From NCBI RefSeq assembly GCF_025231485.1, contig NZ_CP104003.1:2356001-2420000 (forward strand): DNA of 64,000 bases. The letters are read 5' to 3'. The notes under the pieces are model-generated. The model was not told where the DNA came from. It saw only the letters and a list, made by a program, of their open reading frames with translations, and did not search any database. A program made the position numbers and the translations under genes. Source of the DNA: Salinirubellus salinus (GTDB taxonomy: Archaea; Halobacteriota; Halobacteria; Halobacteriales; Haloarculaceae). This document shows, in pieces, positions 55,549-61,474 of this stretch (position 1 is its first letter; each line of letters opens with the position of its first letter).

Positions 55549-56208
55549 CTACTCCTCCGCGGCCCGCCCGTCCGCGTTCCCGAACGCCCCGTCGATAGCG
55601 TCGCCCTCGTCCCACTCGGTGACGTTCTCGCGGACCACGCGGGTCGTCCCGTCGTGGTGAAACTCGTTGACCCCGCAGTTCGACTGGGAGTGCTCGAGGA
55701 GCGCCGTCTCGACGTCGAGGGTCTTCACGTGTCCCAGCAGGAGATAGATGGGCCCACCGTGCGTGACGACCAGCACCGTCCCGTCGCCGCCGTCGAGGAC
55801 CTCGCGCCACCCGTCGACCACCCGGTCGCGCATCTGGAGTATCGACTCGCCGCCCTCCGGTACCTCGCTCGCGGCACGGACCGCCGCCTCGCCCAGCGCG
55901 AACTCCGGGAACCGCTCGTGGATGTCGCCGTAGGAGAGTCCCTGGTAGACGCCGAGGTCACGCTCGCGCCACGCGCTGTCGAACTCGACGGGAGCGTCGA
56001 CGTGCTCGCCGACGTGCTCGGCGGTCTGGCGGGTCCGTAGGAGGTCAGAGGCGACCACGCGGTCGAACGCGTACTCGCGGGCGAGGTAGCGGCCCACACG
56101 GTCGGCCTGCTGGCGACCCGTCTCGTTCAGCGGCACCGGGGCGTGCCCCTGCATCCGCCCGTTCAGGTTCCAGTCCGTCTCCCCGTGTCGGACCACGACG
56201 ACTCGCAT
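55549..56208 (-). CDS. Histidine phosphatase family protein
   Basis: A 219-residue phosphoglycerate-mutase-like protein from ATG 56208. The phosphate-accepting His is in VVVRHGETDWN, followed by MQGHAPVPLNETGRQQADRV. WRERDLGVYQGLSYGDIHER has the general acid Glu region, and VVTHGGPIYLLLGH carries the second catalytic His. The substrate could be a phosphosugar, phosphoserine or alpha-ribazole phosphate; nothing here decides. It lies 28 bases from a second member of the family (different start sequence), so they are probably an old tandem duplication transcribed together. Confidence 0.88.
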   Translation of the reverse strand: MRVVVVRHGETDWNLNGRMQGHAPVPLNETGRQQADRVGRYLAREYAFDRVVASDLLRTRQTAEHVGEHVDAPVEFDSAWRERDLGVYQGLSYGDIHERFPEFALGEAAVRAASEVPEGGESILQMRDRVVDGWREVLDGGDGTVLVVTHGGPIYLLLGHVKTLDVETALLEHSQSNCGVNEFHHDGTTRVVRENVTEWDEGDAIDGAFGNADGRAAEE

Positions 56209-56236: not shown

Positions 56237-56923
56237 TCACCGTTCCCCTCGCATCCGGTCCTCGGTGCTCGGGTCCGGGTCTTCGGTGTCGCCCCCGTCC
56301 GCGGCCACCCCGTCCGGGCGGAGGTTCGTCCGCACCACCTCGGTCCCGTCCCCGTCCACCCGGAGTTCCGCCACCGAGCCGTTCGAGGCCCACCCCTCGC
56401 CGAGCGTCGAGAGGAAGTCCCGGTCCTCGACGTGCGCCAGCAGGGCGAAGATGGGCCCGCCGTGGCTCACGACGAGCGTCGTCCCCTCGTCGTGGCGGCC
56501 GGTCAGCGCGTCCCACCCGGCCAGCACCCGCTCGCGCATCTCGAGGAACGACTCGCCGCCGGGCGGGGTGGCGCGGGCGCCGTGGATACCCGAGTGGAGC
56601 AGCGAGTACTCCGGGTGGCCGCCGTAGGCCTCCTCGACGGTGAGTCCCTGTAACTGCCCCATCGAGCGCTCGCGCCACGCCCGGTCGAACGTCGGGTCGT
56701 GGTCCCAGCCGGCCGCGTGGAGCGCGTGGACCGTCGTCTCCCTCGTCCGCCGGAGGTCCGAGGCGAACACGCGGTCCACGTCGTACTCGGCGGCGAGCAG
56801 TCGCCCGGCGGCCGCCGCCTGCTCGACCCCACGGTCGGTCAGCGGCGTCGGCGCCCACCCCTGAACGCGGTTCTCGGTGTTCCACGTCGACTCGCCGTGG
56901 CGCAACAGCAACACGGTGTGCAC
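56237..56923 (-). CDS. Histidine phosphatase family protein (tandem paralogue)
   Basis: A 228-residue member starting at GTG 56923. Motifs are LLLRHGESTWN (catalytic His), VQGWAPTPLTDRGVEQAAAA, WRERSMGQLQGLTVEEAYGG (acid) and VVSHGGPIFALLAHVEDRDF (second His). It shares the plan of the adjacent gene (55549-56208) with moderate identity, and it carries an acidic C-terminal extension (GVAADGGDTEDPDPSTEDRM). It is the upstream gene of the pair, with a 120-base gap to tatC, transcribed in the same direction. Confidence 0.88.
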   Translation of the reverse strand: MHTVLLLRHGESTWNTENRVQGWAPTPLTDRGVEQAAAAGRLLAAEYDVDRVFASDLRRTRETTVHALHAAGWDHDPTFDRAWRERSMGQLQGLTVEEAYGGHPEYSLLHSGIHGARATPPGGESFLEMRERVLAGWDALTGRHDEGTTLVVSHGGPIFALLAHVEDRDFLSTLGEGWASNGSVAELRVDGDGTEVVRTNLRPDGVAADGGDTEDPDPSTEDRMRGER

Positions 56924-57043: not shown

Positions 57044-58360
57044 TCACCGCCCGAACAGCGCCTCGCGCCCCCGTTTGGTCCACTTGTCGAGGAACAGCGT
57101 CCCCTCGAACAGGGCGATCATCGTCGCCGCGACGAGGATGGGCGCCATCCCGGTCGGGTCGGGCGCGAACAGGAACGCGATGCCGACGAACGCCCCCCAG
57201 AAGTAGAGGCGCCGGTCCGCCATCCACCGCCGGGAGACGATGCCCATCATCAGCGCCAGCGCCACGAACAGGGGGATCTGGAAGATGAGCGCGAACCAGC
57301 CGAGCATCAGGACCATCAGGTCGAACGTCTCGGTCAGGCCGAACGCGATCTCCGCGGCGTTCTCCGTGTAACCGAGGAAGTACGTGAACAGGAACGGGAG
57401 GACGAGGAAGTACGCGAACAGCACGCCGACGGTGGCGAGCACGAGGCTCGTCGGGACGCTCGCGAGGTAGTAGCGGCGCTCCTTCGGGTAGAGCCCGGGG
57501 CGCATGAACAGGTACGTCTCGTAGACGAAGACGGGGAGGCCGACGACGAAGCCGGCGAGCGTCGCCACCTTCAGCCGGGCGAGGATGAGCGCCAGCGGAG
57601 CGTACACCCGCGGTTGGGGCACGTCGCCGACCACCGGCCCGGAGTTGAGGATTGAGTACCAGAGGAAGTTGATGATCTCCGCGCCGAACGGGAAGACGAT
57701 GCCGCTGACGATGGCCATCACGACGAGGACGACGCCCAGTCGGCGGACCATCTCCTCGATGTGGTCGGCCAGCGGCATCTCCTGGTCGCTGGCCGGGCCG
57801 TCGTGGACGAACTCCTCGTCCGCACCGGGCGTCTCGAACTCCGACCCGGCAGTGCCCGTGCCGTCGGCGTAGCCGCCGTCGGACTTGGCCTCGCCCGGCG
57901 ACTCCGGCTCCGAGTGCGAGTCCGGCTGCTCCGCCTCCGGGTCGACCGGACTCTCGTACTCGGGGGGCTCGAGTTCGACGTCGTCGAACTCCTCGTCGGC
58001 GTCGGCCGGGTCGTCGGCGTCGGACTCGTCGGGCAGGTCGTCCGTCGCGTCGGCGTCCGCTCCCTCGTCGCTCCGGTGGTCGCCGACGGCGTGCGGCCAG
58101 CCCTGTCCACCCGTCGGGTCCCACGCCGCCTCCAGTTCCTCGATGTCCTCCTCGGAGAGGTTCTGGCCGAACCCCTCCTCGTAGTCGTCTTCCTCGGGGT
58201 CGTAGCCGGCCGTGTCGGGCGCCGAGTCGGTCGCCGACGCCTCGTCGGCTCCGTCGGACGCCGCCGCCGGCGCGTCTTCCCCGTCGGTGCCGTCGGTGGC
58301 ACCGTCGCTCCCGTCGGACGTGTCCGGGGCTGGCGGCTCGTCCGACGACTCCTCAGCCAT
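57044..58360 (-). CDS. tatC: Sec-independent translocase TatC, with acidic N-terminal extension
   Basis: A 438-residue protein. The TatC domain starts at about residue 195 (MPLADHIEEMVRRLG, the conserved cytoplasmic N-terminus). It has six helices, including FVVGLPVFVYETYLFMRPGL, YPKERRYYLASVPTSLVLAT and the conserved FAPDPTGMAPILVAATMIAL. It binds twin-arginine signal peptides. The first 194 residues are an Asp/Glu/Ser-rich disordered cytoplasmic extension, far longer than in bacterial TatC; acidic leaders are known in haloarchaeal TatC. It has a TATA box (GGCTTACAAG, 58384-58393) 24-33 bases upstream and is divergent from the double-TatC gene. Confidence 0.94.
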   Translation of the reverse strand: MAEESSDEPPAPDTSDGSDGATDGTDGEDAPAAASDGADEASATDSAPDTAGYDPEEDDYEEGFGQNLSEEDIEELEAAWDPTGGQGWPHAVGDHRSDEGADADATDDLPDESDADDPADADEEFDDVELEPPEYESPVDPEAEQPDSHSEPESPGEAKSDGGYADGTGTAGSEFETPGADEEFVHDGPASDQEMPLADHIEEMVRRLGVVLVVMAIVSGIVFPFGAEIINFLWYSILNSGPVVGDVPQPRVYAPLALILARLKVATLAGFVVGLPVFVYETYLFMRPGLYPKERRYYLASVPTSLVLATVGVLFAYFLVLPFLFTYFLGYTENAAEIAFGLTETFDLMVLMLGWFALIFQIPLFVALALMMGIVSRRWMADRRLYFWGAFVGIAFLFAPDPTGMAPILVAATMIALFEGTLFLDKWTKRGREALFGR

Positions 58361-58462: not shown

Positions 58463-61400
58463 GTGTCTAGTGCGCTCGACGAGGACGTGGTGCGGACGGT
58501 AGACAACGGCCGTGAGACGCTCGGTGCGATGATCGGTGCCGCGCAGAGCCACCTCCGCAAGGTGTTCATCGTCTTCGTCGTCGGCCTGATCGGGACCATC
58601 TACGCCCTGCAGGAGTTCATCTGGGCGCAGATGAAGGCCGACCTGAACGCCAACCCCGACATCCAGATCGTCGCGGTCACGCCGTTCGACGTCATCCTGC
58701 TCCAGGTCAAGATCGGCCTGGTCGTCGGGGCACTCCTCTCGCTCCCCCTGCTCGTCTACTACGCTCGCCAGCCCCTCCGCGAACGGGGGCTCTGGGTCCC
58801 CGACCGGCTCGACGTCTCCGTCGGGGGCTACGTCGCCCTCGCGCTCGTGAGTCTCGGCCTCCTCGTCGGCGGCATCGCCTACGCCTACTTCCTGTTCTTC
58901 CCGCTGATGCTCGACTTCCTCGCCTCGAACGCCACGAGTGCCGGCTTCGAGCCGACCTACAGCATCGTGATGTGGGCGCAGTTCATCTTCCTGCTCTCGG
59001 TCTCGTTCGGCCTCGCCGCCCAGTTGCCGCTCGTCATGTCCGGACTCTCGTACACGGACGTCGTCCCCTACGAGACGTTCCGCGACAAGTGGCGCTACGC
59101 CGTCATCGGCATCTTCGCCTTCGGCGCGCTGTTCTCCCCGCCGGACCCGTTCACGCAGATCATGTGGGCCGTCCCGCTGCTGTTCCTCTACGGCCTCTCG
59201 CTGGGGCTGGCCCGCATCGTCACCACCGCCCGCGTCTCCAGCGAGGCCATCGGCGTGCGGACGCTGGCACGCCGACGCTGGAACCTCCTCGTCGGCGCGT
59301 TCGTGGTCGTCGCCGGTGGCACCTACCTGCTCGGACAGGCGCTCTACGCCGGCCGCTTCGACGCCACGCTCCAGCAGTTGCCCGCCCCCATCCGTCCCGG
59401 CCTGTTCGCCCGTGACCTCCTGTTCGGCCTCCCGGTCGACGGCGTCCTCGCCGTCGTGGGCGTCCTCCTCGGCCTGCTCACCGCCGGTGCCGTCGTCGTC
59501 GTCCTCCTGTTCACCGAACTCGAGGAACTCCCGTCGCCCGAGGAACGACGCCGCGGGCGGGCCCGCGCGGCCCCCGCCAGCACCGGGACGCCCGCCGCAC
59601 TCGACGTGGGGGCACTCGACGTCCACGGCGTCCGGGCCGCGCCCATCGAACCGTTCGTCGAGATGACCGAGGACGAGGCGCTGGCGCTCGCCCGCGAGGC
59701 GATGGACGACGACGACCCGGACAAGGCCGAGGCCCTCCTCGACCGGTTCGACGAGGCACAGGCGATGGTCGAGGCCAACCCGGAGGCCAACGGTGCGACG
59801 GCGGCGGCCGCCAATCGCGTCGGCGAGGACGGCGAACTCGAGGACTCGGAGGCCGCCAAACCGGCGACCCCGAACCCCACAGCCGAGGACCCGGCCGACG
59901 TCGAGATCGTCGGGCTGACCGCCAGCGGCGTCCGGAACGCCCCCGACGAGGTGTTCGCCGAGATGACCGAGGACGAGGCCGTCGACCACGCCCAGCAGGC
60001 GATGGAAGCGGGCAACGCCGAGAAGGCCGAGGCCATCTTCGAGCGGTTCGACGCCGTGCAAGAGCGCATCCGCGCCGAGGGTCCGACCGGGACGTGGGGC
60101 GAGTCCGCCGAGGGGTACGGCGCGGTCCTCCGCCTCGGCGCCTCGCGGGTCGACTGGCGCGGCCGGTTCGGCGCCGTCTGGAACCTGCTGGCCGTGCTGG
60201 CCGTCCTCGTCGGCGGCGGGGTCTACCTCGGCGTCTCGCAGGGCGCGGTGACGCTCCCGCCCGCGCTGGCCGATATCGCCGGCCCGACGGTGCTCGGGGC
60301 GGCGCTCGGCGTCCTCGCGGGGGTGCTCGTCGCCGGCCTCGTCGCCGGCGGCCTCGCGGCGCTCTGGGCCTACCGCGCCGCGACCGACGCCACCGCTGTC
60401 GACTTCGCCGTACTCACCGTCGAGGAGGTCCGTGACGCCCCGTTCGCCGCGTTCTTCGGGACGCTGGAGGGCGACGTGGACCGCGAGGCCGAGGCGCTGA
60501 TCCGACGCGGGGAGTCGGAGAAGGCCCAGGCCCTGTTCGACCGGTACGAGGAGGTCGAGTCCGAGCGCGAGAACACCGAGACCCGTCGGCGCGCCTCCCG
60601 TGGCGCCAACGATGGCGGCGTCTTCTCCCGCACCGGCGCCGGGATGGCGAGCGCGTTCACCGACGACGACGTGGACGACGACGACATCGGCGGCTACTAC
60701 TACGACCTCGCGTTCATCTTCGACTCCATCACGTCGAAGACGTTCTGGCTGGTCGGCTGGTTCATGGCCGTCCTCGCCCTGACGTTCGTCACGCTCTACC
60801 AGGGCGGTATCGGCGTGCTGAAGAACCAGTTCTACGCGCGCCTGCCCGCGAGCGTCCAGCCCGACAGCGTCCAGCTGGTCACGCTCCACCCGGTCGAGGC
60901 GCTCATCTTCGAGATCAAGGTCTCGACCATCATCGCCGCCGTCGCCACCCTGCCGCTCCTGCTCTACTACGTCTGGCCGGCGCTGAAGGAACGCGGGTTC
61001 GCCAGCGGCGACCGGAACGTGCTGGTGACGTGGGCGGGGACGCTGTTCGGCGGCCTCCTCGTCGGGAGCGTCGTCGGGTTCCTGTTCGTCGCCCCGACCA
61101 TCATCTCGTGGCTCGCGGCCGACGTGGTCCAGAACGAGATGCTCATCCGCTACCGTATCAACAACTTCGGCTGGCTGGTGTTCTTCACCACCGTCGGGGT
61201 CGGGTTGATGCTGGACATCCCGCTGTCGATGTGGCTGTTCCACCGCGGCGGGCTGGTCCCCTACCGCTCGATGAAGGCACGCTGGCGCGAGGTGACCATC
61301 GCCGTCCTCGCGGTGGCGGCGCTCGCCTCCCCGAAGGGCATCTTCACGATGTTCCTGCTCGGCGTGCCCATCATGGCGTGCTACGGGCTCGGGCTGGCGA

Positions 61401-61474
61401 TACTCCGGCTCTACGTCGCCGTCAGCGGCGACGAGGGACGCCCGCCGCTCCTCAGCGGGCAGGAGGCGGACTGA
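58463..61474 (+). CDS. tatCt: Double TatC (TatCt), two TatC domains joined by a long membrane/soluble linker
   Basis: A 1003-residue protein. The N-terminal TatC domain (about 20-270) and C-terminal TatC domain (about 745-995) each have six helices (for example VKIGLVVGALLSLPLLVYYA and IKVSTIIAAVATLPLLLYYV). The linker contains two two-helix units, each opening WNLL (about 273-355 and 573-640). It also has three copies of a soluble repeat with GVRxAP...EMTEDEA...KAEALxxRFD (about 384-438, 484-539 and, diverged, 648-705). Haloarchaeal TatCt is a known Tat component; it is usually described with 14 helices, whereas I count 16. GTG 58463 is chosen by its promoter. Confidence 0.93.
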   Translation: MSSALDEDVVRTVDNGRETLGAMIGAAQSHLRKVFIVFVVGLIGTIYALQEFIWAQMKADLNANPDIQIVAVTPFDVILLQVKIGLVVGALLSLPLLVYYARQPLRERGLWVPDRLDVSVGGYVALALVSLGLLVGGIAYAYFLFFPLMLDFLASNATSAGFEPTYSIVMWAQFIFLLSVSFGLAAQLPLVMSGLSYTDVVPYETFRDKWRYAVIGIFAFGALFSPPDPFTQIMWAVPLLFLYGLSLGLARIVTTARVSSEAIGVRTLARRRWNLLVGAFVVVAGGTYLLGQALYAGRFDATLQQLPAPIRPGLFARDLLFGLPVDGVLAVVGVLLGLLTAGAVVVVLLFTELEELPSPEERRRGRARAAPASTGTPAALDVGALDVHGVRAAPIEPFVEMTEDEALALAREAMDDDDPDKAEALLDRFDEAQAMVEANPEANGATAAAANRVGEDGELEDSEAAKPATPNPTAEDPADVEIVGLTASGVRNAPDEVFAEMTEDEAVDHAQQAMEAGNAEKAEAIFERFDAVQERIRAEGPTGTWGESAEGYGAVLRLGASRVDWRGRFGAVWNLLAVLAVLVGGGVYLGVSQGAVTLPPALADIAGPTVLGAALGVLAGVLVAGLVAGGLAALWAYRAATDATAVDFAVLTVEEVRDAPFAAFFGTLEGDVDREAEALIRRGESEKAQALFDRYEEVESERENTETRRRASRGANDGGVFSRTGAGMASAFTDDDVDDDDIGGYYYDLAFIFDSITSKTFWLVGWFMAVLALTFVTLYQGGIGVLKNQFYARLPASVQPDSVQLVTLHPVEALIFEIKVSTIIAAVATLPLLLYYVWPALKERGFASGDRNVLVTWAGTLFGGLLVGSVVGFLFVAPTIISWLAADVVQNEMLIRYRINNFGWLVFFTTVGVGLMLDIPLSMWLFHRGGLVPYRSMKARWREVTIAVLAVAALASPKGIFTMFLLGVPIMACYGLGLAILRLYVAVSGDEGRPPLLSGQEAD

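What the first reader, a model, noticed from the sequence alone, without database searches (positions are those of the whole stretch)
58463..61474. Double TatC with duplicated two-helix modules and three soluble repeats in the linker
The linker between the TatC domains holds two units that each start WNLL and contain two helices, and three copies of a short repeat around GVRxAP, EMTEDEA and KAEALxxRFD, the third diverged. This gives about 16 membrane helices where haloarchaeal TatCt is generally described with 14. The repeats sit on the cytoplasmic side and could recognise Tat signal peptides, TatA or a chaperone.
Basis: partly seen in the sequence, partly recalled or inferred. Interest (0 to 1): 0.6.

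Follow-up and report, generated by a model that had tools for sequence, protein, structure and literature searches.

The report
Haloarchaeal TatCt with expanded linker
A salt-loving archaeon's fused double TatC protein, part of the machine that exports folded proteins, has between its two halves an unusually large linker with two membrane hairpins and three copies of a small helical domain; close relatives carry only one of each, so this is an enlarged version of a known part.

Summary
The gene (58463-61474, +) encodes a 1003-residue double TatC (TatCt) whose linker holds two membrane hairpins and three copies of a ~55-residue soluble domain ("S"). S1, S2 and S3 are significantly alike, as are the two hairpins, and AlphaFold2 gives 6+2+2+6 = 16 membrane helices with each S folded as a four-helix mini-domain.

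The S domain itself is not special to this gene. It is in 379 of 392 haloarchaeal genomes, normally one copy; all 108 TatCt linkers extracted have it, and no strong hit lay outside TatCt. No Pfam or NCBIfam family covers it. What is unusual is copy number: this is the only genome of 146 in its family with the second hairpin module, and the only linker of 108 with 16 helices plus three S. Other lineages have two modules, two or three S, no hairpin, or neither. Module B resembles the second module of another family (73 bits) more than its own family's module (29 bits).

Function is inferred: a cytoplasmic docking or assembly element. Signal-peptide recognition by S is less likely, because TatCo keeps the bacterial signal-peptide residues and both TatCt domains have lost them.

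The parts
58463..59248 (+). TatC domain 1 (residues 1-262), six membrane helices; keeps the Q215-equivalent of E. coli TatC (Q232)
   Evidence: Pfam PF00902 and TIGR01912; alignment to solved TatC; Q in 69/76
59279..59524 (+). hairpin A: helices at residues 273-295 and 325-354, starts WNLL
   Evidence: AlphaFold2, hydropathy; groups with single hairpin modules of its own family
59597..59776 (+). S1, soluble four-helix mini-domain (residues 379-438)
   Evidence: profile 7e-25; model of this copy alone pLDDT 91
59900..60079 (+). S2, second copy (residues 480-539), extra relative to all two-hairpin relatives examined
   Evidence: profile 7e-22; 29/62 identical to S1, Z=19
60173..60382 (+). hairpin B: helices at about residues 571-592 and 603-640, preceded by VDWRGRFG, starts WNLL
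   Evidence: AlphaFold2; Z=4.6 to hairpin A; hairpin part 29.5 bits with the f4 module-B profile against 9.3 or less with the others
60398..60577 (+). S3, diverged third copy (residues 646-705)
   Evidence: profile 2e-7; Z 8-9.5 to S1 and S2
60665..61432 (+). TatC domain 2 (residues 735-990), six membrane helices; lacks the signal-peptide residues and the Q215-equivalent
   Evidence: Pfam; alignment to solved TatC; column counts
57044..58360 (-). TatCo, divergent neighbour, single TatC domain with all five signal-peptide residues and an acidic N-terminal tail of about 190 residues

Best explanation
This is an ordinary haloarchaeal TatCt whose linker has grown by copy-number expansion of its two standard parts, a membrane hairpin and a small cytoplasmic helical domain (S). 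Shown by computation: two hairpins, three S domains, 16 predicted membrane helices; the S domain is a separately folding four-helix unit seen only in TatCt; module B (hairpin B + S3) is more like the second module of another haloarchaeal family than like its own family's module. Inferred: TatCt supplies two TatC units and TatCo the third of a trimeric receptor like the bacterial one; TatCo binds the signal peptide, and the linker lies at the cytoplasmic face, where S serves as a docking or assembly surface for TatA, for TatCo or for incoming cargo, a place taken in bacteria by the cytoplasmic helix of TatB, which archaea lack. More copies would mean more docking sites or a longer reach.
For: Repeats and fold. 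S in 379/392 genomes of the order and in none of the genomes sampled outside it; strong hits in 59 genomes were all in TatCt-sized frames. S stays when the hairpin is absent (L059, L105, L109, L115), which speaks for a role of its own. Module B: 1 of 146 genomes of the family, 16 sampled genomes of family f4, 73.0 bits with the f4 module-B profile built without the window against 28-43 with other modules, clade support 99. Exactly three TatC domains in 109 of 116 near-complete genomes. TatCo keeps the signal-peptide residues; neither TatCt domain does. Bacterial receptor is a (TatBC)3 trimer with TatB helices across the cytoplasmic face (PMC13323110). Archaea lack TatB (PMC2910488).
Against: No partner of S is known and no experiment is available. 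TatCt of families f9 and f11 has no S and no hairpin, so S is not needed for a TatCt fusion as such. TatA gene number (1-3) does not follow linker size. No Foldseek match at E below 3 for S and no TatA/B family match in the protein, so the comparison with TatB is one of position only. A heterotrimer has not been shown: three domains per genome does not fix stoichiometry.
Confidence: 0.4

Rival explanations
1. The linker is a passive tether. Hairpins and S copies vary in number by near-neutral duplication and loss, and only hold the two TatC domains together and keep the fusion soluble and correctly inserted.
For: Linker type varies widely: none in f9/f11, S alone, hairpin + S, hairpin + 2 or 3 S, two hairpins + 2 or 3 S. 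The spacers between units are acidic and poorly predicted.
Against: S itself is strongly conserved (mean column identity 59%, F, E and R invariant in 96 copies) and is kept in 379/392 genomes, which a passive spacer would not need.
Confidence: 0.3
2. S domains recognise Tat signal peptides or the cargo directly, raising affinity or widening substrate range.
For: Cytoplasmic position; weak TPR-like helix-pair similarity in about ten of 96 copies; haloarchaea send most exported proteins through Tat (PMC2910488).
Against: TatCo keeps the known signal-peptide site; TatCt in f9/f11 has no S; TPR scores are below the curated cut-off.
Confidence: 0.12
3. Hairpin B and S3 are a fresh duplication within this lineage, and the likeness to f4 module B is convergence or long-branch attraction.
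For: win_B is the longest branch; holding win_A with win_B is not rejected (p-AU 0.34).
Against: The f4 profile, built without the window, scores win_B 73 bits against 29 for the own-family profile; placing win_B among the family's single modules is rejected (p-AU 0.022).
Confidence: 0.2
4. Assembly error or a broken gene.
For: The architecture is seen in only one genome.
Against: No stops, genome of two contigs and 100% estimated completeness; the three S copies differ by about half to two-thirds of their residues, so this is not a collapsed or repeated read.
Confidence: 0.02

Closest known systems
Haloarchaeal TatCt (e.g. Haloferax, Halarchaeum and most of the order)
   Same: Two TatC domains fused, hairpin + S in the linker, divergent TatCo next door
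   Different: Standard linker has one hairpin and one S (14 helices); here two hairpins and three S (16 helices)
Two-module TatCt of family f4 (genera g61, g69, g73, g87, g89, g99)
   Same: Two hairpins, each followed by S; module B of the same kind
   Different: Two S, not three; this genome lies in another family, and its TatC domains and module A match that family
TatCt with tandem S (f7 g64 with two, f10 g43 with three)
   Same: S multiplied in tandem
   Different: Only one hairpin
Bacterial TatBC receptor
   Same: TatC fold; three TatC units per receptor would fit two from TatCt and one from TatCo
   Different: Bacterial trimer is of one TatC gene plus TatB; no TatA/B family match in this protein

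Membership tests
TatCt (fused haloarchaeal TatC) | two TatC domains in one chain | tested here: met
   two stretches of PF00902 and TIGR01912
TatCt (fused haloarchaeal TatC) | cytoplasmic linker with S, usually with a hairpin | tested here: met
TatCt (fused haloarchaeal TatC) | neighbouring TatCo gene | tested here: met
   divergent TatCo at 57044-58360; 97 TatCo frames found in fetched loci
TatCt (fused haloarchaeal TatC) | works in Tat export | not testable with these tools
   needs genetics
Standard 14-helix TatCt | single hairpin, single S | tested here: not met
   two hairpins, three S
TatA/TatB | PF02416 match | tested here: not met
   no match in P0001 at E up to 10
Tetratricopeptide repeat | score above curated cut-off | tested here: not met
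   only weak matches in about ten of 96 S copies; no significant fold match
Trimeric Tat receptor | three TatC units per complex | tested here: inconclusive
   three TatC domains per genome in 109/116; stoichiometry not measured

The most novel reading that the evidence does not exclude
Haloarchaeal Tat receptors are built as one fixed trimer, two TatC units from TatCt and one from TatCo, with labour divided: signal-peptide site in TatCo only, the TatA/TatB polar-cluster glutamine in TatC domain 1 only, and domain 2 structural; the linker's S domains and hairpins occupy the cytoplasmic place of the missing TatB, and this genome has enlarged that part.
Probability: 0.25. Interest if true: 0.75.

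Novelty: new variant of a known kind. Interest (0 to 1): 0.45.

Why it matters
It points to a mini-domain, without a curated family, that is nearly universal in and apparently restricted to haloarchaeal TatCt, and gives a natural series of linkers (12, 14 and 16 helices; zero to three S) on which its role can be tested. The TatCo/TatCt residue pattern also offers a concrete, testable answer to why haloarchaea keep both proteins.

Tried and rejected
Standalone S or hairpin proteins: weak hits in 547-551 aa frames (L103, L104, L113) are coiled-coil transducer-like proteins, not relatives. Link between TatA gene number and linker size: none seen. TatCo N-terminal tail as S partner: tail length and sequence vary too much to show co-variation. 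Known family for S: none in Pfam or NCBIfam above cut-off; PDB sequence hits are mostly designed helical proteins and leucine-rich repeats, judged chance; no fold match. S1/S2 as a very recent duplication: rejected, 47% aa identity with third-position identity about the same as for S1/S3. Minus-strand ORF of 1089 aa: shadow frame. Literature: the Haloferax TatCt genetics paper (Dilks 2005) is not held, so the '14 helices' statement rests on general knowledge and on the relatives studied here.

Full report
What is there. The reading frame at 58463-61474 (+) starts with GTG, giving MSSALDED..., and runs 1003 residues without a stop. It carries two TatC domains. Divergent to it lies a single-domain TatC, TatCo, at 57044-58360 (-). 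Between the TatC domains lies a linker of 455 residues. Its units, in order: hairpin A, S1, S2, hairpin B, S3.

Is the repetition real. DNA search finds a three-copy family of 163 nt. Shuffle tests give Z=19 for S1/S2, 8.3 and 9.5 for pairs with S3, and 4.6 for the two hairpins. A profile of S built from single-copy relatives, without the window, finds all three copies (7e-25, 7e-22, 2e-7). AlphaFold2 on a 76-row alignment of loci gives mean pLDDT 82 and a helix pattern of 6+2+2+6 membrane spans; S1 is among the best predicted stretches of the linker. S1 alone folds at pLDDT 91 into four helices.

What the S domain is. It has no family above cut-off in Pfam or NCBIfam and no significant fold match. 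It is found in 379 of 392 genomes of the order, 342 of 345 of the better ones. In a closer look at 59 genomes every strong hit lay in a frame of TatCt size. In a sample of the phylum the hits were all from this order. All 108 distinct TatCt linkers taken from loci fetched by that point hold at least one S. Its consensus is about IDLxxLDAxGVRAAPxEAFxxMxExEALxxAxxAMxxDDxEKAQAILDRFDEA, with F, E and R invariant. I found no description of it in the papers that could be searched, but most subscription journals are not held.

How linkers vary. Families f9 and f11 have a bare fusion with an acidic linker, no S and no hairpin, and S profile scores near zero. Four proteins have S without a hairpin (L059, L105, L109, L115). 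The common form has one hairpin and one S. Two genera have two or three S in tandem with one hairpin (L098-L101). Sixteen proteins of family f4 have two hairpins and two S. The window protein has two hairpins and three S, the largest of the 108. Within its own family it is the only one of 146 genomes with module B; the next-best hit falls from 83 to 40 bits (the window sequence is one row of that query, so its own score is helped). Within 392 genomes of the order, 17 show module B.

Where module B came from. A profile of f4 module B built without the window gives window module B 73.0 bits, against 29.4 for the own family's single modules, 31.0 for f4 module A and 42.5 for other families; for the hairpin alone it is 29.5 against 9.3 or less. 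Module A behaves the opposite way (170 bits with its own family). The tree puts window B with f4 B at 99, also when the long-branched L073 copy is left out. Holding window B among the family's single modules is rejected at p 0.022, but pairing window A with window B is not (p 0.34). I take shared origin with f4 B as likely, by retention or exchange, not proven.

How it might work. The bacterial receptor is a trimer of TatBC units, with TatB helices lying across the cytoplasmic face and E. coli TatC residues H12, E15, F94, Y100 and E103 contacting the signal peptide (PMC13323110). Aligned through solved TatC structures, TatCo keeps H12, E15, F94 and E103 in 95 of 95 and Y100 as Y or F. In TatC domain 1 the F94 position is mostly A and the E103 position P in 64 of 76; in domain 2 they are A in 64 of 76, and D or R in 58 of 76. 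The H12/E15 region of the TatCt domains is not aligned by the tool, so its loss there is read by eye. The Q215 position, part of the TatA/TatB polar cluster, is Q in 69 of 76 in domain 1 and M in 74 of 76 in domain 2; in TatCo it is not Q, read from the pairwise alignment. And 109 of 116 near-complete genomes hold exactly three TatC domains. This suggests one receptor of three unlike TatC units, TatCo holding the signal peptide. In that picture the linker sits at the cytoplasmic face and S is a docking or assembly surface; this last step is inference only, with confidence around 0.4.

Limits. Topology is predicted, not measured. Queries A1 and A3 include window rows, so the window's own scores in those searches are helped. 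Counts per genome depend on the tool's first look. The organism was not identified. No binding partner, stoichiometry or phenotype can be derived from sequence here.

Noticed in passing
L050 and L051 (G065, G063), also L083 (G152): TatCt in which the TatC domain 2 match is split by roughly 80-120 extra residues containing a further hydrophobic stretch; a different kind of insertion from the one studied here.
   Followed up: no
L138-L148 (G153, G155, G168, G180, G190): TatCt of families f9 and f11 is a bare fusion of two TatC domains with an acidic linker and no S or hairpin, a natural minimal form.
   Followed up: yes
L105, L109, L115 and genomes G174, G192, G227, G242, G442: Genomes with five or more TatC domains; some carry a second TatCt paralogue whose linker has S but no hairpin. 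G442 has seven TatC matches.
   Followed up: partly
window 57044-58360 and TatCo of fetched loci: TatCo has an acidic, low-complexity N-terminal tail whose length differs greatly between relatives; only the ...PLxxHI stretch at its end is nearly constant.
   Followed up: partly
window 55549-56208 and 56237-56923 (-): Two adjacent phosphoglycerate-mutase-like ORFs that look like tandem paralogues, judged from the translation only.
   Followed up: no
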